Made by a program: the position numbers and the translations under genes. This document shows, in pieces, positions 1 through 14,144 of a stretch of DNA of 64,000 nucleotides. How positions within the stretch are numbered: the first letter of the stretch is position 1; each line of letters opens with the position of its first letter. Source of the stretch: Monosiga brevicollis MX1 (taxonomy: Eukaryota > Opisthokonta > Choanoflagellata > Craspedida > Salpingoecidae); the NCBI RefSeq assembly GCF_000002865.3, contig NW_001865039.1:8645-72644 (forward strand). The letters are read 5' to 3'. The notes under the pieces were generated by a model, which saw only the letters and a list, made by a program, of their open reading frames with translations, had not been told where the DNA came from and did not search any database.

Positions 1-2584
1 TGGGGGTTGGCTGTGCTGCTGACTGCACGACTGGCTGTGACGTGCTCTCGCCCTCTGCCAACGTTGTTTGCACCGAGCCTCGCGCCTCTTGCTGTAAAGG
101 CGCCTCATCATCAGCATCAGAGACCATGGGGGAAGCTGGCACCGACATGGATGCTGTATCTGCCTCATCAATCCAAGCAGCACTCGTCTGTATCCGTGGC
201 ACGGCAGCATCCGTCATAGGCCCTGCATTTGTCGCCATCACAGCCGTGTCTTGGGCACGTGGAGTGCTTCTGCTCGACTGCGCTGCAACGGCACCTGTTC
301 CTGGGGACGCGACTGTGTCAACGCTCGATGCTGAAGTTACATCCAAAGCGGACTCTGGCCCGATCGATTCTTCTTCCTCGAGCCGTGCTGCAGGTGGCTC
401 AGACAACACATCTTCCTCCTCCGCCATCGCCTCGGGCTCTGCTTCCACATGCCCCACACTCAACGCTTGGGCAGCGCGCTGCTGGCGTGCAGCTCTTGCT
501 GGCTCCAGGCGCTGTGCTGTTCCTGCGCACACGTCACAAAGCGGCTGGCCGGCAGCAAAGCATGTCGCGGCGCGGGGATCTAGCAACTTGCCGAGCGCCC
601 AGCTGCGGCACGCATTGCCCTCGACAAAATTTTCCATGCCCGGTGCTGGCCCACGTCTCACTGGTAGCCACAGCTCGGCAGTTCCACCCTGTTTATCGCG
701 ACCAGCCCGACCAAATGCCTAGCCCAAGCACATGTACACCATCAGCAAAACCAACAATCGGATATTTTTTTTTTTTTTTTTTTTTCAAATCCATAAAGTC
801 ACACGACCGCTTGAGCAACAACGTACCTGGGCCAGCGTATAGACGTTGTAGCCGTTGCCATACCACAGCACGTGGCGAATGGTGAGCAGATCCACACCCG
901 TGCTGAGGCAGCTGGTGGCCACAATGACGTCGCATTCACCCCGTTGCCACTGTGCCACATGGTCCTTTTGCGCCTTCTCCTCCAGGTTGGTGTAGTAGGG
1001 CAAGGCCACGTAGCCGCGTGCGTGCAGCTGGTCACACAGCAGCTTCACCTCGTTCACAGTGTCGCAAAAGACCATCATGTGCACACGCTCCCCATTCGCC
1101 TGACGCATGTTACGCTGCGTGTCCACAATGGCTTGCACATGCGACAAAAAGTTTGGCTGGTTTCCGTGAAGCACACGCAGCTGCAGATCGCGACGCATCG
1201 TCTCCAAACGGTACACCTTGCCCCCGACTTGCTGCCCCAGCTTTCGAAACAGATGCTCCTGGTCCCCGATGCAAAGTGTGCCCGTCAACGCCACGCGTTT
1301 GATGTTGGTCCATCCGCCAGAACCCACACTGGCTGCGACTTCGTCCATCACATCTCGGTAGCTGGCATCCGAGATGAGCGTGTGCGCCTCGTCCATCACC
1401 ACGGTGCGGATGCGCTGAAAGCAGACCTTCCCGTGTAGGGATTCAGATCCCACGCGGACAAACATGTCGGTCGTAACGATGAGTACGTCCAGGCCATCTG
1501 CCACCTGTGTAGAGGGACCAAGCCATCGCTGGGCACTGTGACCTGCGCCTTGAAATCGCCGCAATAAATCGTTGGCCACGGGCACAAACGGCACAATCCA
1601 CAGCACCGTACCGGCATGCGGGCGACAGCCCAGCTTGGGCAGGGTACAAAATGTTTTACCCATGCCTGTCGGTGTGCAACACAATCAGCCATCCATCTTC
1701 CGGCTGGTGCTGGTCAATGGCCGCAGCCAGGTCCAACTGTTCTTGGCTGTTGAAACTGTGGCCCCACGAGATGCTTGCCTGCTTGGCCAGCTGGGTCATG
1801 TAGGGTACGTCATGCTCGGCCCTCGTGTTCATGATGATACGCCCGTTTGCCTCGGGCGAGAGGTCAGTCACCGGGTTCCAGCTGATGGGATAGCGAGCTT
1901 CCAATGCTTCTTGGTTCGCGGTCAACTCGGCTATGCTGCGCTTGCGATCTAGTCCAAACAAAGCATGCCATTTTTGCGAGGCCACTTGATGCATCAGTCG
2001 CGACGACATTTTGGTTTGCACATGGTCACTGGCTGTGCGCGCATAGGCCCGCTGGGCCGTGTCCCCAGAGTGTTGAGCTTGAGTGTGGATCAGGCTGCCC
2101 AGGGCGCCGGTCGTCTCGGCCGACAGTCGGTTAATCACAAACGTCGTCATCCAGAAGGTTGCGGCGTGTCGCCACGTGGCCACCCCCAGCTTTGGCCGAT
2201 GCAGGTACGTGGTCATTTGTCGACGAAATGCCGCATAGGGCTGACCATCGCCTGCAGGGGCGCAATATTGAAGAGGAGGTGGCTGTTGTTGTAGTGGTTT
2301 CGAGCATCCCGGACCTCGCGTCGCAGAGTCATCGTCTCGTTGTGGCTCATGTGGTCTTCATCCAGCTCGTCGTCGAGCAAATCTTCGTCGTCCTGCTCGG
2401 CATTGTAAATGCCATTCTCGTCGTCCAGCCTGCCCCGCTTCTGCAGCCAGCTGCTGAGCGTGTGCTCCAGAGGCTTGCACAGCAGCAAATACATGAATAT
2501 CACCGTGCTGATTTCCTGGTCCGTGTATCGAAAGGTGTGCTGTTCGTTCAGGGATAGCCAGTAGGTCTTGCTCACGCGGGTCAA
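1..2584 (-). pseudogene. RecQ-type helicase with recombinase-like N-terminal region (partial, probably degenerate)
   Basis: Superfamily 2 DNA helicase read on the minus strand and cut by the left edge. Upstream segment (2584-1656) has an acidic stretch, a 'HSGDTAQRAYAR' motif and the start of the helicase fold ('FNSQEQLDL'). The core (about 1684-827) has motif I TPTGMGKT, motif II DEAH, motif III TGT, and motif V with 'VATSCLSTGVDL'. A GTACGT donor at 826 and an acceptor at 719-720 join to 718, restoring motif VI as 'QAFGRAGRD'. A four-Cys RecQ-like zinc segment follows (C-x16-C-x7-C-x2-C), then a Ser/Ala/Glu-rich tail to the edge. The first helicase motif and motif I are in frames one base apart around 1680, so the copy is broken or the assembly has an indel. 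Known: fungal RecQ-type mobile or telomere-linked helicases carry a similar recombinase-like region. Inferred: this is a mobile-element helicase rather than the host's RecQ. Confidence 0.7.
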
Positions 2585-3457
2585 TATGGAGAGCTGCTTT
2601 TCGGCAAAAAAACAGGGCTCATCGTTGCCGGCCCACGCCGTTTTTGTAGGACAGCCCTTGATACACAGAGGCTCGTGGCGGCAAACCTAGATCCAGGCAT
2701 GCATGCGTGAGTGGCGTCCATCAGCACCAGCGGGCACCAAAAAAAAAAAAAAAGCCCGCCTGCTTCCAATCGTACCTCCGGCAATGTGCGTGTAGGTGAG
2801 TGCTAGCTCGTTGAACCTGCACACATATAAAAGCCATGGCCCTTGCGAGGCCACTTGATGCATCAGTCGCGACGACATTTTGGTTTGCACATGGTCACTG
2901 GCTGTGCGTGCATAGGCCCGCTGGGCCGTGTCCCCAGAGTGTCGGGCTTGAGTGTGGATCAGGCTGCCCAGGACGCTGCCGACAGTTGGTTGATGACCAA
3001 CGTCATCATTCAAGACTTCCGTCGAGACGGAACAAGTGATTTGGTGTTGTCTTGTCGTCAATTGAACCAGCTGCGGCTGGCAAGCATTCACAGTGACCAG
3101 ACCAGAACACCATCAAAATGGCTGTAGAGACGCTCAGAGAAGGTGCAATCCGTGCAAGTCAGAGGTGTCACAACAAACAAACAATGACAAGAAACAGAAC
3201 ACAGGCTTATTAGAAAAGTCTCTCTCCAAGACGTTGCAAAGTACACGAAGTTTGCGCGGACGACGCATGCCCCCCAAAAAAACAACGGAGGCAACTCAGT
3301 AGGTCAAGGGGTGTGTGTTAGTCAGGGGATGACATATCAGCTACGGACGTGTCTGTGGGAAGACCTATGGTAGATGACGCTGCTTGTGCGCAAAAGCAAT
3401 GGGGTGTCCAAATGCGTGGGAGAACAAGCAGACAACTAGCAACTCGTCCAGGTCATC
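2585..3457. other. Intergenic stretch between the helicase remnant and the ankyrin-kinase-PARP gene
   Basis: Apart from the partial duplicate at 2847-3020 and an A-run near 2739-2753, no coding exon with family resemblance was found on either strand. It forms the 3' flank of the ankyrin-kinase-PARP gene, whose stop is at 3458-3460. Confidence 0.5.
2847..3020 (-). repeat. Second diverged copy of the helicase gene's recombinase-like region
   Basis: About 125 bp here match 1976-2104 almost base for base, covering the same 'HSGDTAQRAYAR' coding segment. Weaker similarity continues for about 50 bp (compare 2975-3020 with 2105-2160), with a gap of about a dozen bases. The flanks then diverge completely. 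It is a partial duplicate in the same orientation as the main copy, about 870 bp away. It could be a remnant of a nested or tandem element, or an alternative exon; its broken edges favour a remnant. Confidence 0.8.
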
Positions 3458-4510
3458 CTAATCGGCCTTATAGTATACAACCAGCTCGGGATAGATTTGG
3501 GCATTCTCAAACACAATCACCTCATGGAACCGCCCGGGCGGTGTCGCAACAACTGAGTCAAACCTGCAGAAATTTAACGGTGAACGAAACGGTCAGATTA
3601 GGAGGTGGACAAAGGCAACATGCAGCAAATGGTCGATTTTGTCCAACGCACCGCTCGTTGTTGGAAGCATCGGGCAGGAGCGGTGGCGCCAGCGCTCCAG
3701 AAGGAGGTGATGGATGGGTATGGGCATGGCCCAGGAGTGTCCGCGTGATGATGAGCATTCGTTCGCCATTGGGTCCGGCATGAGCGTACTGATGACTCTG
3801 GAATCATGTGAATACACTGCGGTTAGTACAACAGAGCTCAAATGAACAGGCAAAATTGAAAAGCAGCGCGGCCACACCTTGCCGGGATGGTCCGCCAGGT
3901 AAACACCAAGACCAAATCGGTGGCCAGCACTGGTGCCAGCAAACCGATAGTCAAGGCCCAGGCGCACAATCTTGTCGCGCAACACTGTGTCAGGGGCGAT
4001 GCCGTGGAGTAACAGACGCTCTTGACAGGATGTATCGCGAAGCAGAGCTGGAGAGCCCGAGAGCGCATCCGATGTGGCCGTTTGGAGTTGACCATAGTGC
4101 TCCTGACTTTTGATACGATGCAACATCTCACGTCGCTTGGCGCTGTAGCGCTCCCACAGCACGGGGTTGTGCACGCGCTCTACCCGCTGCACTGCAATAT
4201 TTGCTGGTCCCCGCCCATCGGTGTTCAGCTGCTTCAGTAGATCACCGACCTAAGCAACCAGTAGGTTCAAATCAGATGATTCGTGGAAGAGAGCAAAAAA
4301 AATTAACAAGCAACGCACCTCTGAAATGAGCTCGGGCGCATCGCGCAAGACATCAATGGCTGGCCCGGCTAGGGGAAAGGCAGGCTGCTGCACGATTTGT
4401 CCGGCACTGAAAAGACTTGGTCGTTGCTTTGGATCTGTTGCAAGCAAGGCTCGTGTTTCCTTGTACAGATTGCTCACTGCGTCGCACATCTGCACAAAAA
4501 CACAACTGTG

Positions 4511-4590
<80 letters not shown>

Positions 4591-7500
4591 TGACAACCAG
4601 AGCGTCATAAAATTAAAGAGAACAAAATATTTGACTAACCTCGGTCGCCAGATGAGGAAAGCTAAAGGCGTCATCTCCCGCTTGAAAATCCCATCTGCAA
4701 TGATCCACGACCTCATCGGTTCGCGACTGAGCCGGCGCCACCGTTTGTGGGTACATGTAGGTGTTGTAGAGAACGCAGCCAAAGGAAAAGGCATCCTGTG
4801 CCGGACGCGCTCCCACACGACCCCGGCCGAAAAGCACCTCCGGTGCCACGTAGCCCGCCGTGCCCGACGACGCGGTGGCAGTGCAAGGCAACATGGTGGC
4901 TTCAGCGGCGGCCTTGGCAATGTCAAAATCGCCCAGCCGCACAACAGGCTGGTCCTCCGAGCCGTCCAGCATGACATTGCTCAGCTTGACATCCCGATGC
5001 ACCAGGCCCTTGCTATGCATAAAGGCTAGGGCGGTGCGCAGCTGAGTCATCAGACCCGCAATCACGGTTGAGGTGGCCAGGTGGCGCGCCTTGCCGAGCC
5101 ACTGCTGCAAGTCACCCTGTGCACACCATGGCTGTACCAGGTAGGCGCTTGGGTGGCCACTGTGTACATCCACAAGTGCGCCGAGGACAGGGATAATGTG
5201 TGGATGCTCAAGCTGGCGCATGGCGCGAAGCTCGCGCAGGAATGTCCGGCACTGATCTTGCTTATGTTGCCGAGCAAAAGCGTACTCCTTTACGGCCAAA
5301 TCTTGTTCCCCAGAATCTTTCAGCGCGGCGCGGGCCTTGTACACCTTGTGATTTTGGCTGTAATGAAGATCAAGCTGGCCCAGGCTGGAGAGCGACAATG
5401 CCCGGTCGACTTCGGTCATGGCCTCCAAGATCAGGCTGGTTGGAAGGTCGGGGCCAAGCACTGTGCAGAGGCGCGCTCCCAGCGTGCTCTGCTCAGGGTG
5501 CAAAAAGACCTGCAGAGCTGGGAAGTGTTGGTGTAGCAGCTCTGCCAGTGCCGCCACCTGGTCCACCTGTGTTTGATCTGATAGTTGTTGCTGCAAAATG
5601 CGCAGACGTTCTCTCTTGGCAGCCAAGTCAGCTTGAAGGCCAGTGCGCAAGGCATCTGGAGCAAAAGTCAAGACTGCCGTGGTCGCCTGAATTTGTTTCT
5701 GCAGCTCGGCCGCTTCCTCATGCGCAGGTACGGCTTGGGCATCTGTGCTCTGCGTGATGCCGCTGGCATACTCTTTGCACAAAGTCAGCACGTTCAGCGT
5801 CTTGGTCTGCCAGTCGAGCATGTCATGCAACTGCTGCAACAGGGCTTGTGCCTCGTGAAGCACAAACGCCAGATACCAGTCTTGATGCTCATAGTCGTGC
5901 TCAACTCTCCAGGTGATCAGTCGCTCCAAGCCGCTCTGCTCGGGCAAGCTCAGCTTTTCGTGGGCTAGGCACAGCTGCTTCCAGGCCTCATGCAATGCCT
6001 CCACTGGAGGCGGTGCGCTCACATCCAAGCCTTGCGCACACTGTTCGAGTGTGTCGAGGCGATAGTCCGTGTCGATGGTTCCCGCTGTTGCTACAGCACG
6101 CAGGGCAGTAATTAGCGCCAGCGTCAGCTGCTGGAGGTGGCTGTTGGCGCTGGTGAATAGTTTTTGGCGCTCGAGCCCCGCGTCGCGTAGCATGGCGACT
6201 TTGTCTAGGGCTGCACTTAGGCTGGCGGGTGGCGCTTTAGGTGCCATTATCAACGCGGTGGGTAGAGCGGGGCATGCTGCCAGCACGGTCTGAAGCTCGA
6301 GAAGCACCGGCTGCAGTTCAAAACCAGCAGTGACATTGTGCAGCTCTTGCAGTACTGATTTTAGGTTGTCAGAGTTGAGGTCCAATTGACCTAAGCGGCT
6401 GTTCAACGCTTCGGGCGCTGCAAGTGCCTGATCAAGCGCGCCAAGGGCCCGGGTGGTGGTAGCCTGGAAGGCAGTCCAGTCCATGGCAGGAAAATCTGGT
6501 GGCGCTTCATCGATGGTCCTCTGGATCTCCGCAGCCGCCGTTGCAAGATCGGGGTTTTGTTTGGCGGCACCGCTGATAAAGGCATCGAGGTGGGGGAGGG
6601 GATGGGTGGTGGTGCGCTCCGGTAGGAGTGGCCTTAGCCAAGTGTCCACTGCCACCACGATAGAGGCAGTAGCCTAATGGGGGGTTGTGTGGTGTCATTG
6701 GTCGTGAGTACGTTGGATGAGGCCGTGCGGTTTGGGACAGGAAATGCATTGGGAAATCAAGCGAGGAGCAGACTCACCTCGAGGGTGGGTGCGGAGCTGG
6801 GCAGAGGCGGCAGCCAGGTGGAAGGCGGTGCAGGCGTGGGTGTAGCGGGGGGCGTGGGTGGTTGCGCGAGGCGAGCCTCGTGAGCAGCAAACACGGGCTC
6901 CAACTTGTCGCCATATCGACGTCTCAAATCGAGGGGCGTTTTGCCATCCTGAGAACATGGTCACAGTCAAGCCATCGGAGCGTGTGAGGTGGGCAGCCAC
7001 GCGAGGGTTGAGTTGGGCAATGTGCATTTGCTTTCTCATAACACCGGCGAGGTAACAATGCTTTAAAGTGTGCTGAAGACGCCAGACGTGCGAGTGGTGT
7101 ATACTGGAGTCGGCAGGTAGCAGGGGTCCGAAAGGATGCGAGATAGGAGGGAAAAAAAAGGGCGGGATAAAACTGAAGAAACGGCCACCAAAAGCCGCTG
7201 GAGCGCGAGAGAGGCAGAGGAGTGATAGCAACTGGTAAAGTGGTGTCCGGATGGATCAGAAAAGGGGAGGGCAAGGACGGCAAGCGGAAGTGACCAGCGG
7301 GGAACAGGGCGGGGAACAGGGAGCACCGACAAAGCGCGGACGCAAAACGGAGGAAGAACACGGATAGGGGGAAAGAAGACAAGGAGCCAGAGGCATAACG
7401 AAAGCGCACGGGTGGGCAGGATGTAGAGGAGAGAGGGGCGGGGCAAAGGCGACGAGCAGCGGGAGCAGTAGCAGCAACAAGAGGGACGGGGGGGAAGAGG

Positions 7501-8275
7501 AAGGTATTGTACTGACGTTGTTCTTGGCTTCAGCATCAGCACCGTACTGCAACAGCATCTCTACCACCTTGACGAGACCGTTTATGCAGGCAAAGTGCAG
7601 TGGTGTCCAGCCAGCCTGTGGGATGATACATCAGCATGACGTACAGGGACAGCATCTTCAGCACCATACATGGATACTCTAGGTGTACCATCATAGGGGG
7701 GAAAAGGGGGAAAGAGGAAGGCACTGTACTGACGTTGTCCTTGGCTTCAGTATCAGCACCATACTTCAACAGCATCTCCACCACCTTGACATGACCCTCA
7801 ACGCAGGCATGGTGCAGTGGTGTATCGCCACCCTGTGGAATGATGCATCATCAGCGTGACGTACAAGTATAGCATCATCATCATCATCATGTGGTACAGG
7901 TGTACCATTACAAGGGCTTAAGCAGGAAGAGGGAGGCACTGTTCTGACCCTGTTCTTGGCTTTAGTATCAGCACCGTGCTTCAACAGCATCTCGACTACC
8001 TTGACATCACCCTTATAGCAGGCCCCGTGTAGTGGCGTTCTGCCAGCCTGTGAAATGATGCAAACATGCAGTATATGTTATACCATCGCGTCACCGAATC
8101 GAGCGTCATATTCCAAGTGTACCAATACCACGCAACATCATACCATACGTACCTCATCTTTGTATTGGGCAGCATCTCGAATACGTTGTTGGTCCCAACT
8201 GGTCATAAGCTGCAGCGCCTCTTGTGAATCAGATGACCAACACGCCTGGTCCAGCTGCACTCCACCATCACTCAT
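3458..8275 (-). CDS. Ankyrin-repeat, protein kinase and PARP chimeric protein
   Basis: About 1170 residues in 11 or so exons. Exon 1 (8275-8153) is a cap with 'TSWDQQR'. Exons 8047-7949, 7832-7734 and 7615-7517 each code exactly one 33-residue ankyrin repeat. A weaker repeat follows (about 7077-7000), then 6948-6778 with a half repeat and a Pro-rich linker. Exon 6673-4640 (678 codons) holds a helical region and most of a kinase domain: 'AVKEY' lysine, 'HRDVKLSN' loop, 'DFD' in place of DFG, and 'APE'. Exon 4489-4319 finishes the C-lobe ('DPKQRPS'). Exons 4249-3878, 3797-3652 and 3563-3458 code a PARP catalytic domain: 'LLHG', 'GVYLAD', 'GERMLIITRTLLG', 'HEVIVFENAQIYPE'. The H-Y-E triad is present, so poly(ADP-ribosyl)ation is plausible. 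Splice phases agree at the junctions checked. Known: tankyrases join ankyrin repeats to a PARP domain but have no kinase. The cap is shared with the three upstream ankyrin genes. Confidence 0.85.
4511..4590. repeat. Compound (AAC)n(GAC)n trinucleotide microsatellite
   Basis: About 12 AAC units run directly into about 15 GAC units, ending in a TGA. The tract lies in the intron between kinase exons 6673-4640 and 4489-4319 of the ankyrin-kinase-PARP gene. It creates long Asn/Asp or Ser-rich open frames that are not genes. Confidence 0.95.
7517..8047 (-). repeat. Tandem exon-plus-intron duplication coding three near-identical ankyrin repeats
   Basis: Three 99-bp exons start at 8047, 7832 and 7615, a period of 215-217 bp. 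They code nearly the same repeat ('VKVVEML' core, 'GADTKAK/TEAK/AEAK' ends). The two introns between them are also alike: both begin GTCAG-ACAGTGCC, contain 'ATGGTACACCT', carry a 'GTACGTCA-GCTGATG' stretch and end in CCACAG. Matching introns show recent unequal duplication of an exon-intron unit inside the gene. Confidence 0.85.
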
Positions 8276-9063: not shown

Positions 9064-10294
9064 TTAGGCTTGCCACAGACATTTAATAATGCCATGCAAG
9101 TCGTGAAACGCGCGATCCTCAAAAACGTTTGGCTCCGCTTCCCAGCCAACACTGAAGAGTACTGCCATCAGAGTCTTGCAAAGCCTTTTCTGTTCTGCCA
9201 GGAGCACGGCTTGAACTAGCATGCATATCGTTTAGCGCACTTGTAAGCAAGGCAAGAAAGCCATGCCTGAACGTGGTCAAACGAGTGCGCATCCCACCTT
9301 CTGGCTTCCAGCTTCGGTACCGACCAGACCGGCAGCTGGCACGAAGCAACGTGACAACCAGCTAATGTGCAGCAATCTTCAATATTGAAAAGAAGCGGCG
9401 AGACTGCCCAATGCGACGGCACTGGAGCGTCGCGCCATTTCTTACGTTAAGGTTAACTCGAAAAAGTCTGAGATGAAGATGAAGAGGGCTTTGCTTTGTC
9501 TGAGAGGCCAGCAGCCGACATCAATGGGCAGATTGAGCAGTTCAATCGCGACCACATGGGTGCACCAACCGTGCTCAGCGCGTCGGCATTTGCACCATGC
9601 TCTAGAAGCACGCGTACAACATCCTGGTGACCCTGCCTAGAAGCCGCATGAAGAGCCGTTAAATCATCCTGAAAAACCCATGCAAGGTAAGATGGTGAGC
9701 CGTGGCAAGGAGCGGAGGTCAACTTGTTTAAGGTCGAGTGGAGGAATGAGGAGGAAGCATGGCCAGCGCGAGGAGAAACAGGATGGTCACCTTATTTTTG
9801 GCTTCAGTATCCGCGCCGTGCTCCAACAGAATCTTCACAATGTCCACATGTCCATATTCACAGGCAAGGTAGAACGAGGTCCAGCCATCCTGTGAGGCAA
9901 CTTGTTTTTCAATGAGAATAGGAAAGAATCTGGAATCATGTTCGAGAAAGGACTACAGGAACAGGCATGTGAGAGGGAATCACTGACGTCGTTGCATGCG
10001 TTGGCATCAGCGCCATGTTTTACCAGTATTTCTGCTGGCCCCAGATAACCGTTACAGCAGACAACGTGGAGTGGCGTCCGGCCATGCTGTGGGTTGATTG
10101 ACACATGGACAGGCGTTCGTTCGCATGCGGAGCGATGCCATCATTCAAACGTGTCGAGCACCATCCATTCGTACCTCTTTGAAGGAAGCAGCAGATCGGA
10201 TGCGCTGATCATCCCAGCTCTTCAACAGCTACAGCGCGCTCTGCGCACTCCTCGATTGACATGCACTGTGAAGCTCCTTCCCATCCGATCTCAT
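9064..10294 (-). pseudogene. Ankyrin-repeat gene C, with an in-frame TAG in exon 1
   Basis: Paralogue of genes A and B. Exon 1 (10294-10175) starts with an ATG and codes the family cap, ending 'LLKSWDDQR'. Codon 22 is TAG (10229-10231); the sister gene at 8275 has CAG at that site, so a single C-to-T change would explain it. Exons 10086-9988, 9889-9791 and 9668-9570 each code one intact 33-residue ankyrin repeat with proper splice sites. The end of the gene codes the shared C-terminal module ('LLAEQKRLCKTL', 'AVLFSVGW') with stop at 9064-9066. The exons between 9570 and about 9210 could not be fixed. Apart from the TAG the coding exons identified look undamaged. It may be a young pseudogene, a polymorphic null allele, a base error, or a gene started further in. 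Confidence 0.7.
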
Positions 10295-10530
10295 GGCGAT
10301 GGACGCTGTGTCAAGCCCTCGTCGACCCCAAAAGCACCACCACTGCTTGCTTGTTCAGTCGCACAAGAATCGAATTTCAAATTGAAAAAAAGCTGACAAA
10401 TGCCCCCACAAAAATAGTAAAATACATCAGATCCTGGGTACCGTGTCAAAAGAGTCCATGTCTTTGAGAGCTCTCAATTTCCGAAGTTGGTGGTGCAGTG
10501 CATACTCGTTTTGCACAAGTGTGCCCTGGT
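10295..10530. other. Short spacer between ankyrin genes B and C
   Basis: 236 bp between the stop of gene B (10531-10533) and the ATG of gene C. It contains nothing recognisable beyond an A-rich patch near 10384-10420. The tight head-to-tail spacing fits origin by tandem duplication. Confidence 0.5.
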
Positions 10531-12343
10531 TCACGAAGGACAGATAAAGGGCCACTTGTCGGCGAGGAGCAGCAAGTCGCGCTGCTGGAAGTACCTCGGC
10601 TCAACTCTCCATCCAACGCCATAGAGCACTGCTGCAGCGCGCTGCCACAATTTCCTTTGCTCGATGCGAAGCAAGATCCTGACTATGGTGACCAAACAAG
10701 ACGGTTACACGGACAAACCGCCACCCCAGCGAGGAAAAACAAATAGCAACCGGCTTCCTGCATGGCCAACGTACCATGCTTGCGAGAGGCCTGAAAGGAG
10801 AAAGGGGAACGACTGACACGCAGAAGCTCGGCAATGATCTGCGAGAGCAGGCAAGAGGCAAGTTGATTGAGACGCCCAGTCCTTCATACCAGGCCGGGTG
10901 CCAGACCCTACCTGCGACTGGACCGAGTAGGCTGATGTCATGAGCTGCACTGAGCAGCGACCGGCCTAAGATTCACATCGCATTGGTGCATGTAAGAACA
11001 AGATCATGCTTTGTGAAGACAACCTGTGCCGCCTGAATCAAGGGTCCCACGTTATCACGGGCATCCACATCGGCGCCATGGAGAAGTAGCAGTTTTACGA
11101 GCTCCACACTTTGCCGACGGGAACCACACACTACTAGGAGCGGGGTCATTCCGCGCTATATATACATTGGTTAAAAGGAGGGATGAGCGGGTGACGGCCT
11201 GGTTTGCTTTAAACGCTTCTGCATCACGAAAGATAAAAAAAGGAATTCCCGCTCATCCTGACTACACCCCCCTCCCCACACGAAAAAGAAAAAAAAATAA
11301 TAATAATAATCAACTCTTTTCCAAGCTCACATTGGTGCGGGCATTTGGGTTCGCGCCGTGCTGCAAAATAATTTGAGCTGCTTCAGAGCGTCCGTCAGGG
11401 CATGTCCAATGCAGCGGGGTTCGACCGTCCTGAGAACATCAGCCGGAGTGAGAGGAGTACGCACCCCCAGAAAAGCTGTGGACAGCCAAAGAGGCATAAG
11501 CCGCACCTTGTCTTTGGCCCCAACTTCGGCGCCACTAGCGAGTAAAAGCTCCACCACATCTACGCGCCCACACTGGCAAGCCAGATGCAGCGGCGTGCTT
11601 CCACGCTATGCCCAGCGGTCATTGGTTGGAAATCATGGCACAAGCTGAGAAACATGCCACGGCAGACTACTAGCCCAAGGAGCCAACAAAAGCAGCATAG
11701 CTCATCAGGCCAATACGAGCCGCTCTTTCATGGGGCCGAGCACCTACATGAGTCTTGGCTCTGAAATCCACGCCATGCCTCAATAAGACCTTGATCGCTT
11801 CCAAACGACCATGTTGGCAAGCCAGATGGAGCGGCGTATAACCTAGCTGCACACAACCAAAAGCACTTTGCACACGTCAGACATGCAAAGCCTGTGTGTT
11901 GACCGACCATGCGGCGAACGCCAGCATGGAACACACGTCACTTGTCGCCCCAGCGTCGGCGCCAAGATCCAGCAATGCTTGTATTGGACCTTGAAGATCG
12001 TGTTGGCAGGCTTTATGCAGTGGCCCTTCTGTAGCCTATGCAGGTGGTACGATTGTGATGTTTCGACGCGGTTGCCGCCTGCCATGCTTCCGTGCTCCCT
12101 GCAACATACCTCATTGCGGTAAGCCGTGGCTGCCTGCGCACGAGGCAAGTCCCAGCTCCTCAGCAAGCGCATTGCATCCTCTGGCTGTAAGGAGCAGCAC
12201 GCCCGAAACAGGGCTGGCCCGTCACCATCGCCAACTGATCCCGCTACAAAGCAAAACAACCAGACACCCAGACACCCAGACACCCAAACACCAATATCAA
12301 TCGTTGCGGTTTCTCGGGAGCTTTTGGCAAGGGTGTGCTCCAT
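10531..12343 (-). CDS. Ankyrin-repeat protein B
   Basis: Reconstructed from splice sites with consistent phases. Exon 1 is 12343-12292 (an in-frame ATG at 12358 is also possible). A 48-bp intron made of repeated GTGTCTGG follows, then 12243-12110 coding the family cap ('LLRSWDLPR'). Ankyrin repeats lie in exons 12035-11937, 11846-11748, 11605-11507 and 11429-11331 (33 residues each), and 11155-11051 (35 residues). An 18-residue half repeat and a short helical exon ('IIAELLRVSRSPF') precede the last exon, which codes 'LLRIEQRKLWQRA' and 'AVLYGVGW' and stops at 10531-10533. Ankyrin repeats are protein-binding scaffolds; the cap and tail modules are unfamiliar. It belongs to the same tandem family as A, C and the ankyrin-kinase-PARP gene. 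Confidence 0.8.
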
Positions 12344-12698
12344 CTTACACGTACCCATGAACCTGCCCAACAAAAAATTCAATGCTCTCTCCTCACACAA
12401 AACATCACACAAAATTATTGTCACCATTTTGGATGCTTACGTTGTGAAAACAAAAAAAAAAAAAACTCATGGACGATGGGCGGGCTGAAATCAATTCATC
12501 TGTACACTAACATGTAAACTAAACCTACGAGCACGCAGGCGTCAAATGATGTCGAGAAGATGGTGCCAAGGCATGCGCGACATCCTTTGATTTTTATGAT
12601 TTTCGACAGCATGCATCTGCGACATGGGAACGTCTTGGTGCGCTCGCACTGACTGCAAGGCTCATGATTGGTGCTCATGACGCTCGGCTCGCGGTGGC
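12344..12698. other. Spacer between ankyrin genes A and B
   Basis: 355 bp of mostly A/T-rich sequence with an A-run near 12451-12463. No coding exon, repeat or clear promoter motif was identified. It holds the 3' flank of gene A and the 5' flank of gene B. Confidence 0.5.
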
Positions 12699-14144
12699 TT
12701 ACATATAGTTAAGTCGGCGTTGCAGGTCGTTCACGTATGACCAAGGGCGAATTCGAACGGCCTGCTTGCGTGCCCAAAGATCGTTCATGTCGCTGAGTTG
12801 GAAGCTTTGGGGCGCTGCGTGCCACCCAACACTGAAGAGAACTGCCAGACTTTGGTACCAGACTTTGGCCTGCTGTGCCAAGAGGAGGTTTGGATCGGCC
12901 TCTGCGTGCGAAGCAGGCAGGGATAAGGGCGGACAATCGCGCATGACGGCGGCCAATACTTTCTTCGTACCGCTGTCAATGTCAACCTTATAGGCATGCG
13001 GGCGAGTGCTGTTTTGTAAAATGGCCGCAACAATCTGCAGCACAGAGCAGATGAGCTCGATGAGCAAGATGGACACAACTCGGACCGCACTCTGATGATG
13101 ATCGGACCTTGGCCTCAAAGGTGAAGTTCCGATTGAAATAAACGTCGAGTGGGCGATTGGCCTCCTGCCACCCGAGCCGAGGTGTGAGCTCAGGAGAGAG
13201 CCGCAAGCATGCGGGGTTCAAGTTGGACCGGGCTCACAGACATTGTCTTGGACATCCACGTCGGGATGGTGTTGCAGCAAGTACAAGATCAACTCGGGAC
13301 GACCCGTCTCACAAGCGGCATGCAGTGGTGTTTCCCCATCCTAATTGACAAGCGGTCAAGTGAATGGGTAGTCCATGATTTCTACTTTTTCTGATCATGC
13401 GTGGTCAAGGCAAACAGGGCAAATGCAATCCGGCAAAGCCCACATTGTTGGGAAGGTTGACATCACCCCCGTAGTCCAGCAAGATGGGGACGATGCCATT
13501 GTCCCAGTTATAGCAGGCGACAAACAGGGGAGTCTGCCCGAGCTGCACCGGAAAAAAAAAGCATGAGTTGGCCTAATCAGCGGAATTGTCAGGACTGTGT
13601 GGGTCTGTGGGTGCAACGCTTCGTACCTCATCTTGGACGTTGACGTTGGCCCCGGCCGCACAAAGCCGCTGTACAATCTCTGTCAAGCCCAGCTCGGTAG
13701 CGATGCTCAGTGCTGGTTTTCGCAGCTAGTCATGCCTCGAAGCACGCACGCAACTGGTCAGAACCAAGCCGGCTGGCGGAAGGAACAGTGGTCATGCAGA
13801 TCAGGGCGCGCGAGCCGCCGTACCCAGACATCGAGCGTTGCATCGAGCTACATCACAATCATCGTTGGCATTCATCGTTTTTCAGTATATGGGAGTGAGG
13901 GGGAGAGTGAAGGCGGACGTGCGAGCGCGGGACGCCGGTTGTCCAGGGCCGGGACACAGACCTCTGGTTTGCGGGGGGCAAGGGCCGCCACCGTGCGATC
14001 GGGTGTCCAAGAAGACAACAGCTCAACCACCTGATCCAGGTCCTCGTCCATGCAAGCACGGCAAATCTTCAGACGATCCTGCTCGGACAAGTCGAGACGC
14101 TCTTCTGGGGTCGCTGTGCTCTGGCTGCCATCGTGTTGACTCAT
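12699..14144 (-). CDS. Ankyrin-repeat protein A
   Basis: A 290-residue protein from six exons with agreeing phases: 14144-13962 (61 codons, ATG, cap ending 'LLSSWTPDR'), 13725-13627, 13542-13444, 13340-13242 (33 codons each), 13164-13108 (19 codons, half repeat) and 13034-12699. The middle exons each code one ankyrin repeat; 'GETPLHAACETGRPELILYL' is typical. The last exon starts with a helix ('IVAAILQNS') and contains the family's C-terminal module ('LLLAQQAKVW', 'SLAVLFSVGW'). No signal peptide or membrane segment is seen, so a cytosolic scaffold role is the default inference. It is the simplest member of the four-gene cluster. Confidence 0.8.

What the first reader, a model, noticed from the sequence alone, without database searches (positions are those of the whole stretch)
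3458..8275. A single gene joining ankyrin repeats, a protein kinase and a PARP catalytic domain
Exons with consistent splice phases link an ankyrin array to a kinase domain (HRD, APE, conserved C-lobe Arg) and then to a PARP domain with H, Y and E of the catalytic triad. Tankyrases have ankyrin plus PARP but no kinase. A kinase and an ADP-ribosyltransferase in one polypeptide would let one protein write two modifications, or let one activity control the other. I know of no described protein with this order.
Basis: partly seen in the sequence, partly recalled or inferred. Interest (0 to 1): 0.88.

Follow-up and report, generated by a model that had tools for sequence, protein, structure and literature searches.

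The report
Choanoflagellate ankyrin-kinase-PARP receptor family
In a single-celled relative of animals, one gene really does join an ankyrin binding region, a protein kinase and a PARP enzyme, and it belongs to a family of dozens of copies whose ankyrin binding surface is hypervariable, which suggests a repertoire of recognition receptors.

Summary
Minus-strand exons 8275-3458 splice, all GT-AG, into one 1139-aa frame: ankyrin repeats, a 430-aa domain of unknown family, a Ser/Thr-type kinase and a PARP domain with H, Y and E. The genome is Monosiga brevicollis. The gene is no one-off: the PARP exon has 57 places in the genome, 47 with a kinase match just upstream on the same strand. Kinase and PARP are under purifying selection (median dN/dS 0.125 and 0.164, 26 copies). 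H-Y-E is kept in 28 of 28 copies open from kinase to stop, the kinase HRD in 27 of 28.

The main surprise is the ankyrin array. Each 33-aa repeat is its own phase-0 exon. In 72 repeats from 22 copies, five surface positions carry 71 different residue combinations; dN/dS there is about 2.2, against about 0.5 elsewhere. This is the pattern described for recognition repeats of fungal NLR/HET proteins (PMC4986451, PMC1805685). My reading: a repertoire of intracellular recognition receptors with a dual phosphorylation/ADP-ribosylation output. Ligand, expression, enzyme activity and the order of the two activities are untested. No NLR nucleotide-binding domain was found.

The parts
8153..8275 (-). 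exon 1: start codon and 41-aa N-terminal cap of the ankyrin array
   Evidence: homologous exon found in 9 of 10 fetched copies
7949..8047 (-). exon 2: ankyrin repeat 1, 33-aa phase-0 cassette exon
7734..7832 (-). exon 3: ankyrin repeat 2, cassette exon
7517..7615 (-). exon 4: ankyrin repeat 3, cassette exon
6778..6948 (-). exon 5: last (capping) ankyrin-like repeat and Pro-rich linker
5384..6673 (-). exon 6, first part: 430-aa Leu/Ala/Thr/Gln-rich domain (structure not predicted), no Pfam family
4640..5383 (-). exon 6, second part: most of the protein kinase domain (Lys of LAVK, HRDVKLSN, DFD, APE)
4319..4489 (-). exon 7: end of the kinase C-lobe (QRPSL) and the bridge to the PARP domain
3878..4249 (-). 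exon 8: PARP domain with catalytic His (LLHG) and Tyr (GVYLAD)
3652..3797 (-). exon 9: PARP domain, KSHQYA segment
3458..3563 (-). exon 10: PARP domain with catalytic Glu (FHEVIVF), C-terminus and stop

Best explanation
A member of a large M. brevicollis family of soluble, probably intracellular recognition proteins. Shown by sequence: (1) one gene encodes ankyrin array, 430-aa domain of unknown family, kinase and PARP; (2) dozens of copies keep the order, and the copies examined keep both catalytic centres under purifying selection with few exceptions; (3) the ankyrin array is made of interchangeable 33-aa exons in which five surface positions are hypervariable with dN/dS above 1. Inferred: the array binds a changing set of targets (microbe, virus, prey or another cell of the species); the middle domain relays or oligomerises; binding switches on the C-terminal output, phosphorylation plus NAD+-consuming ADP-ribosylation of the same or bound proteins, with the kinase most likely regulating or accompanying the PARP. 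Arrays are renewed by exon duplication, loss and exchange between copies, with selection for new surfaces.
For: Gene model and domains. 57 PARP places, 47 with a kinase match within 2.5 kb upstream on the same strand, 42 of these also with the middle exon. All 10 copies fetched upstream show Ank exons, exon 5 and the middle exon, 9 of 10 also exon 1. Junctions at the expected base in 27 of 36 loci. 28 of 35 loci open to the end; H-Y-E in 28 of 28, HRD and metal-binding Asp in 27 of 28. Median dN/dS: kinase 0.125, exon 7 0.215, PARP 0.164 (26 copies), middle 0.314 (8 copies). Ank cassettes: positions 1, 3, 8, 11, 12 omega 2.22 (bootstrap 1.54-3.71), a set taken from DARPin design (positions recalled) 1.89 (1.29-3.14), rest 0.49; split-half choice returns the same five positions in 39-40 of 40 splits. 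Where flanking introns are 95% or more identical (7 pairs, one of them wholly identical), contact nucleotides differ at 42% and framework at 5%. One cassette replacement seen between two near-identical copies. The same signature is reported for ANK and WD repeats of fungal NLRs.
Against: No expression, binding or activity data. No NACHT/NB-ARC or P-loop, so the relay step is unknown. The third glycine of the ATP loop is absent in 28 of 28 copies and DFG is DFD in 27 of 28. 7 of 35 loci are interrupted. dN/dS is a counting method on recombining repeats, not a codon model, and no other ankyrin family of the genome was run as a control. At position 3 pN (0.611) does not exceed pS (0.642), and outside the five positions 16, 26, 28, 29, 30, 32 and 33 also have pN above pS at lower levels (all 72). 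L044 has lost H, Y and E while L042 has lost the kinase residues, so neither activity is indispensable in every member. The maximum hydrophobicity (1.56) lies just below the usual membrane threshold (threshold recalled).
Confidence: 0.7

Rival explanations
1. An ordinary lineage-specific signalling family: the ankyrin array binds many different host substrates or scaffolds, and paralogues diverged to serve different internal pathways, with no non-self recognition.
For: Purifying selection on both enzymes; ankyrin surfaces may diverge in any paralogue set, and no control family was run; no ligand known.
Against: Contact codons are saturated with replacements even between cassettes with under one synonymous difference (0.654 per site, 306 pairs) or with nearly identical flanking introns; 0 to 7 cassettes were detected per copy; copies are enriched near contig ends. 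Stable internal partners would be expected to give conserved surfaces.
Confidence: 0.2
2. A selfish or passively spreading subtelomeric repeat family whose copies are mostly decaying and whose ankyrin variation is neutral drift.
For: 12 of 45 places within 20 kb and 19 of 45 within 50 kb of a contig end; neighbouring RecQ-like helicase recurs at many contig ends; 7 of 35 loci interrupted.
Against: dN/dS far below 1 in kinase and PARP; catalytic residues kept; contact-codon dN/dS above 1 with framework below 1 is not drift. 20 of 45 places lie more than 100 kb from a contig end.
Confidence: 0.05
3. Two genes, one Ank-kinase and one PARP, that only look fused.
For: No RNA evidence in hand; 10 of 57 PARP places have no kinase match upstream within 2.5 kb.
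Against: The kinase C-lobe ends inside exon 7, and exon 7 joins exon 8 in frame with splice sites at the expected base in most loci scanned; the gap from kinase match to PARP exon match is 358-561 nt in 45 of 47 cases; bridge exon dN/dS 0.215. Several kinase-less PARP places carry stops.
Confidence: 0.03

Closest known systems
Fungal NLR / HET repertoires with ANK, WD or TPR repeats (Podospora het-d/het-e family; PNP_UDP/NACHT/ANK proteins), PMC4986451 (abstract, passages) and PMC1805685 (abstract)
   Same: Multigene family; highly conserved repeats with a handful of hypervariable positions on the binding face under positive selection; repeat number varies; repeats exchanged between copies. 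Five selected ANK positions in one Podospora gene, with one exception on the concave/hairpin face; five here. A protein kinase is among the fungal NLR N-terminal domains listed there.
   Different: No NACHT/NB-ARC domain found here; sensor is N-terminal and effectors C-terminal; effector is kinase plus PARP; each repeat is its own exon; organism is a choanoflagellate.
PARP12/PARP15/PARP14 catalytic domains
   Same: Best PDB sequence matches of the PARP part: PARP12 and PARP15 about 1e-9, PARP14 about 1e-6.
   Different: Here the third catalytic residue is Glu; in the printed PARP12 alignment, read by hand, the residue opposite is Ile. No macro, WWE or zinc-finger domain found by Pfam.
Tankyrases
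   Same: Ankyrin array plus PARP with H-Y-E.
   Different: No SAM domain found, has a kinase, few repeats; PARP part scores lower against tankyrases (about 3e-5) than against PARP12/15. PMC9688111 (passages) reports no tankyrase in M. brevicollis.
RIPK4/ANKK1 and other Ank-kinases (recalled)
   Same: Ankyrin repeats and a Ser/Thr kinase in one protein.
   Different: Opposite domain order, no PARP.
Plant TIR-NLR receptors (recalled)
   Same: Variable repeat sensor tied to an NAD+-consuming enzyme.
   Different: Different sensor fold, different NAD+ enzyme, no nucleotide-binding switch found here.

Membership tests
PARP (ARTD) ADP-ribosyltransferase | PARP catalytic domain above curated cut-off | tested here: met
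   PF00644 40.4 bits against cut-off 26.7
PARP (ARTD) ADP-ribosyltransferase | H-Y-E catalytic triad | tested here: met
   28 of 28 copies open from kinase to stop; lost in L044
PARP (ARTD) ADP-ribosyltransferase | ADP-ribosyl transfer activity | not testable with these tools
   needs protein
Eukaryotic protein kinase | kinase domain above curated cut-off | tested here: met
   PF00069 126.2 bits against 31.7
Eukaryotic protein kinase | beta-3 Lys, alpha-C Glu, HRD Asp, metal-binding Asp | tested here: met
   Lys 28 of 28, the other three 27 of 28, the exception being L042
Eukaryotic protein kinase | glycine-rich loop and DFG glycine | tested here: not met
   third loop glycine absent in 28 of 28, DFD in 27 of 28; first two loop glycines absent in the window copy, not tabulated for the others; activity therefore open
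Tankyrase | SAM domain between ankyrins and PARP | tested here: not met
   no SAM match at E 0.1 in Pfam
NLR (NOD-like receptor) | NACHT/NB-ARC nucleotide-binding domain | tested here: not met
   none in Pfam; no Walker A motif GxxxxGK[ST]
NLR (NOD-like receptor) | repeat sensor with hypervariable binding-face positions | tested here: met
   the placing on the binding face rests on recalled DARPin numbering
Diversity-generating retroelement target | adenine-specific variation | tested here: not met
   adenines of codons 4, 5 and 7 are kept in 64-72 of 72 cassettes, silent third bases of codons 4 and 5 included

The most novel reading that the evidence does not exclude
The ankyrin arrays are a recognition repertoire whose five contact codons per repeat are changed by a targeted process (localised hypermutation or short-tract conversion of the 36-nt contact block) faster than the surrounding DNA, possibly also between clonal cell lines. 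This would be a built-in receptor diversification system in the sister group of animals, wired to a combined kinase/ADP-ribosyltransferase output.
Probability: 0.12. Interest if true: 0.96.

Novelty: new variant of a known kind. Interest (0 to 1): 0.83.

Why it matters
Whether the single-celled sister group of animals keeps large, diversifying repertoires of recognition receptors is, as far as I know, open. This family gives a concrete, testable candidate: hypervariable ankyrin surfaces on a kinase-PARP protein. It also offers a natural case of two writers of protein modification in one chain, with paralogues that have lost one or the other, to ask which controls which. The cassette exons act like a natural counterpart of engineered ankyrin binder libraries.

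Tried and rejected
Two-gene reading: rejected (kinase ends in exon 7, in-frame junctions recur). Pseudogene or drift: rejected by dN/dS. Tankyrase and NLR membership: defining domain absent. DGR-like adenine mutagenesis: rejected. Targeted hypermutation was at first suggested by two exons of L015 (764 and 977) with 0 of 84 framework but 10 of 15 contact differences. I hold it only as the novel case, because just a few silent sites are interleaved with the contact codons and exon exchange between copies can give the same picture. Relatives outside the genome: none confirmed in viral contigs or GTDB genome contigs with the PARP exon as a single-protein query, which finds close relatives only; no eukaryote collection was on hand, so spread among choanoflagellates is untested. 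The middle domain gave only NUDIX_4 at E 0.12 (Pfam) and reovirus sigma-1 at E 0.0077 (PDB profile); I give neither weight. Telomere repeat search: one place only. Kinase group: PDB matches are mixed, not assigned.

Rows dropped before counts: L008 (same place as L022); loci without a match for all five exons (L041, L044, L045, L046, L047); L040 and L042 (divergent) before the dN/dS; three interrupted copies (L013, L014, L021) of 11 before the middle-exon dN/dS; 8 of 80 cassettes not 33 aa long; C20 and C34 (contig length unknown) before the contig-end count. The 47 kinase-PARP places include two fragments (C9:76181 and C9:76296) that share one kinase, so 45 distinct pairs; the contig-end count of 45 still includes these two fragments. 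Kinase-to-stop sequence was examined for 35 loci; the 57 places hold more that I did not read. Array sequence was read for 25 copies, 22 of which gave a 33-aa cassette by the strict rule. Of the three others, L070 and L077 show one ankyrin exon by tblastn and L073 none.
Full report
What is there. On the minus strand of the window, ten exons from 8275 to 3458 splice with GT-AG borders into one frame of 1139 aa. Pfam finds ankyrin repeats (1.8e-29), a protein kinase (1.9e-36, aa 647-912) and a PARP catalytic domain (3e-10, aa 941-1080). Exon 6 ends at aa 875 and exon 7 at aa 932, so the exon 6/7 junction is inside the kinase and exon 7 leads in frame into the PARP exon. The PARP part matches PARP12 and PARP15 structures best (about 1e-9), then PARP14 (about 1e-6) and tankyrase-2 (about 3e-5). 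His (LLHG), Tyr (GVYLAD) and Glu (FHEVIVF) are present. In the printed PARP12 alignment, read by hand, the residue opposite the Glu is Ile. The kinase has LAVK, HRDVKLSN, DFD and APE, but no glycine loop in the window copy. The 430 aa between ankyrins and kinase match no Pfam family with a significant score.

Which organism. Open-frame pieces of an Unc18 gene in the same genome (L060) match PDB 2XHE chain A identically within the pieces; the query's junctions, with one stray residue, were my own. PMC3693963 (passages) names 2XHE as Monosiga brevicollis Munc18-syntaxin. The genome held is 39.5 Mb in 57 contigs.

A family, not a single gene. The PARP exon finds 57 places in the genome, the kinase 53 (the last five, at 27-36% identity, are probably other kinases) and the middle exon 53. 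Of the 57 PARP places, 47 have a kinase match within 2.5 kb upstream on the same strand and 42 of these also the middle exon; two of the 47 are fragments sharing one kinase. The distance from kinase match to PARP exon match is 358-561 nt in 45 of 47, the other two being those fragments. In 27 of 36 loci scanned, the donors and acceptors from kinase to exon 10 fall at the expected base; 9 deviate at one or more sites. Exon length differences are multiples of three except in five loci (L014, L021, L031, L039, L043), all of them among the interrupted ones; the script placed borders at the nearest AG or GT. All 10 copies whose upstream DNA was fetched show ankyrin exons, exon 5 and the middle exon, and 9 of 10 exon 1.

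Selection. Of 35 loci in which all five exons were found, 28 are open from the kinase to a stop near the expected end; 7 are interrupted. H, Y and E are kept in 28 of 28; HRD, alpha-C Glu and the metal-binding Asp in 27 of 28. Over 26 copies the median pairwise dN/dS is 0.125 (kinase), 0.215 (exon 7) and 0.164 (PARP); over 8 copies 0.314 in the middle exon. Two divergent members split the functions: L042 (C37:18520) has lost the HRD, metal-binding Asp and alpha-C Glu but keeps H-Y-E. L044 (C50:1177653) keeps the kinase motifs but has lost H, Y and E. Both parts are thus constrained in most members examined, and they are separable.

The hypervariable ankyrin face. Each repeat is a 99-nt exon beginning and ending in phase 0. 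From 25 copies I detected 80 such exons by a strict rule, 72 of them of 33 aa, from 22 copies; detected counts run from 0 to 7 per copy. Positions 1, 3, 8, 11 and 12 have 3.0-3.6 bits of entropy; the positions interleaved with them (2, 4-7, 9, 10) have 0.71 bits or less; the next most variable are 33, 32, 29 and 23 with about 2.0-2.3 bits. Positions 1, 3, 11 and 12 correspond to positions 3, 5, 13 and 14 of the DARPin consensus, which are randomised to make binders. This mapping is recalled; passages of PMC8683736 and PMC6590788 confirm only that surface positions forming the paratope, six per repeat, are randomised. dN/dS is 2.22 at the five positions (bootstrap over copies 1.54-3.71), 1.89 (1.29-3.14) for the set taken from DARPin design, and 0.49 for the rest. 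Splitting the copies in half 40 times, the first half picks positions 1, 3, 8 and 11 every time and 12 in 39, and the other half gives dN/dS of median 2.33, minimum 1.39. 71 of 72 five-residue combinations are distinct. Random sets of five positions reach the observed value in 11 of 5000 draws. Against: position 3 alone has pN 0.611 and pS 0.642, and positions 16, 26, 28, 29, 30, 32 and 33 have pN above pS at lower levels. No unrelated ankyrin family was run as a control.

How fast. Using the flanking introns as yardstick, 7 of 2556 pairs have introns 95% or more identical. In them contact nucleotides differ at 42% and framework at 5% (one of the seven pairs is wholly identical). In pairs with fewer than one synonymous difference (306), replacements at contact codons are 0.654 per site against 0.093 elsewhere. 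Copies L019 and L020 are 98.8% identical over 2.06 kb, yet L019 has five cassettes detected and L020 one. Downstream DNA differs at 6 of 647 sites, while the last cassette differs at 5 of 12 aligned contact and 9 of 84 framework sites, and the 100 nt just upstream of it do not align well: this looks like cassette replacement by recombination. Kinase and PARP of the same copy share their nearest relative in only 6 of 26 cases (Mantel r 0.67, 0 of 999 permutations as high), which speaks for some exchange on top of shared descent. The variable bases are not adenine-specific: adenines of codons 4, 5 and 7 are conserved.

Reading. The pattern, conserved repeat framework plus a few selected positions on the binding face plus exchange between family members, is what Paoletti 2007 (PMC1805685, abstract) and Dyrka 2014 (PMC4986451, abstract and passages) describe for recognition proteins of fungi, including five selected positions in ANK repeats. 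I therefore take the array as the sensor and kinase plus PARP as the output. It works like such receptors; it is not an NLR by membership, since no NACHT/NB-ARC or Walker A motif was found. No clear membrane segment was seen (maximum Kyte-Doolittle mean 1.56 over 19 residues, just below the usual threshold, which is recalled). Which activity controls which is not shown. The existence of a kinase-dead/PARP-intact and a kinase-intact/PARP-dead paralogue makes that testable.

Location. Of 45 kinase-PARP places with known contig length (two fragments included), 12 lie within 20 kb of a contig end and 19 within 50 kb (binomial p about 6e-6 for each under uniform placement); copies are not independent and contig ends need not be telomeres. 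20 of 45 lie more than 100 kb from an end. A RecQ-like helicase beside the gene recurs at many contig ends.

Prior description. Eight paper searches aimed at this (open-licence PMC only) listed nothing that I recognised as this architecture; two further searches served other questions. Perina 2014 notes ankyrin+PARP in M. brevicollis (passages; section 7 part 1). Citarelli 2010 (PMC2964712, passages) does not describe it in the passages seen. The S. rosetta genome paper (PMC4054682, passages) says that its Ser/Thr kinases are generally well conserved with M. brevicollis and does not use the word PARP. The proteome is public (recalled), so the domain order may stand in databases that I could not search.

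Noticed in passing
window 785-2686, minus strand: RecQ-like helicase frames next to the gene (name by eye, not scanned); 27 places in the genome, many at contig ends and reading outward (for example C55:2600148 of 2600904, C12:4, C47:1127110 of 1129939), like telomere-linked helicases of fungi (recalled).
   Followed up: partly
window 9791-13539, minus strand: Two further copies of the exon-1 module (10294-10175 and 12235-12110) with ankyrin exons nearby and no middle, kinase or PARP match in the window beyond the gene itself: related tandem ankyrin genes, apparently with another C-terminus.
   Followed up: partly
L042 (C37:18520) and L044 (C50:1177653): Reciprocal loss: kinase residues lost with PARP triad kept in L042, PARP triad lost with kinase motifs kept in L044.
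   Followed up: yes
C9:44726, C9:76296, C9:104117, C7:96525, C14:166931, C9:9660: A second PARP exon, with stops in five of these six, 1.4-1.9 kb downstream of another copy's PARP exon.
   Followed up: no
window about 1960-2140 and 2830-2990, minus strand: A duplicated stretch (LGSLIHTQA...HQVASQ) beside the helicase frames.
   Followed up: no
window 4490-4639: Intron 6 carries long TCG and TTG triplet runs, a possible source of length variation.
   Followed up: no
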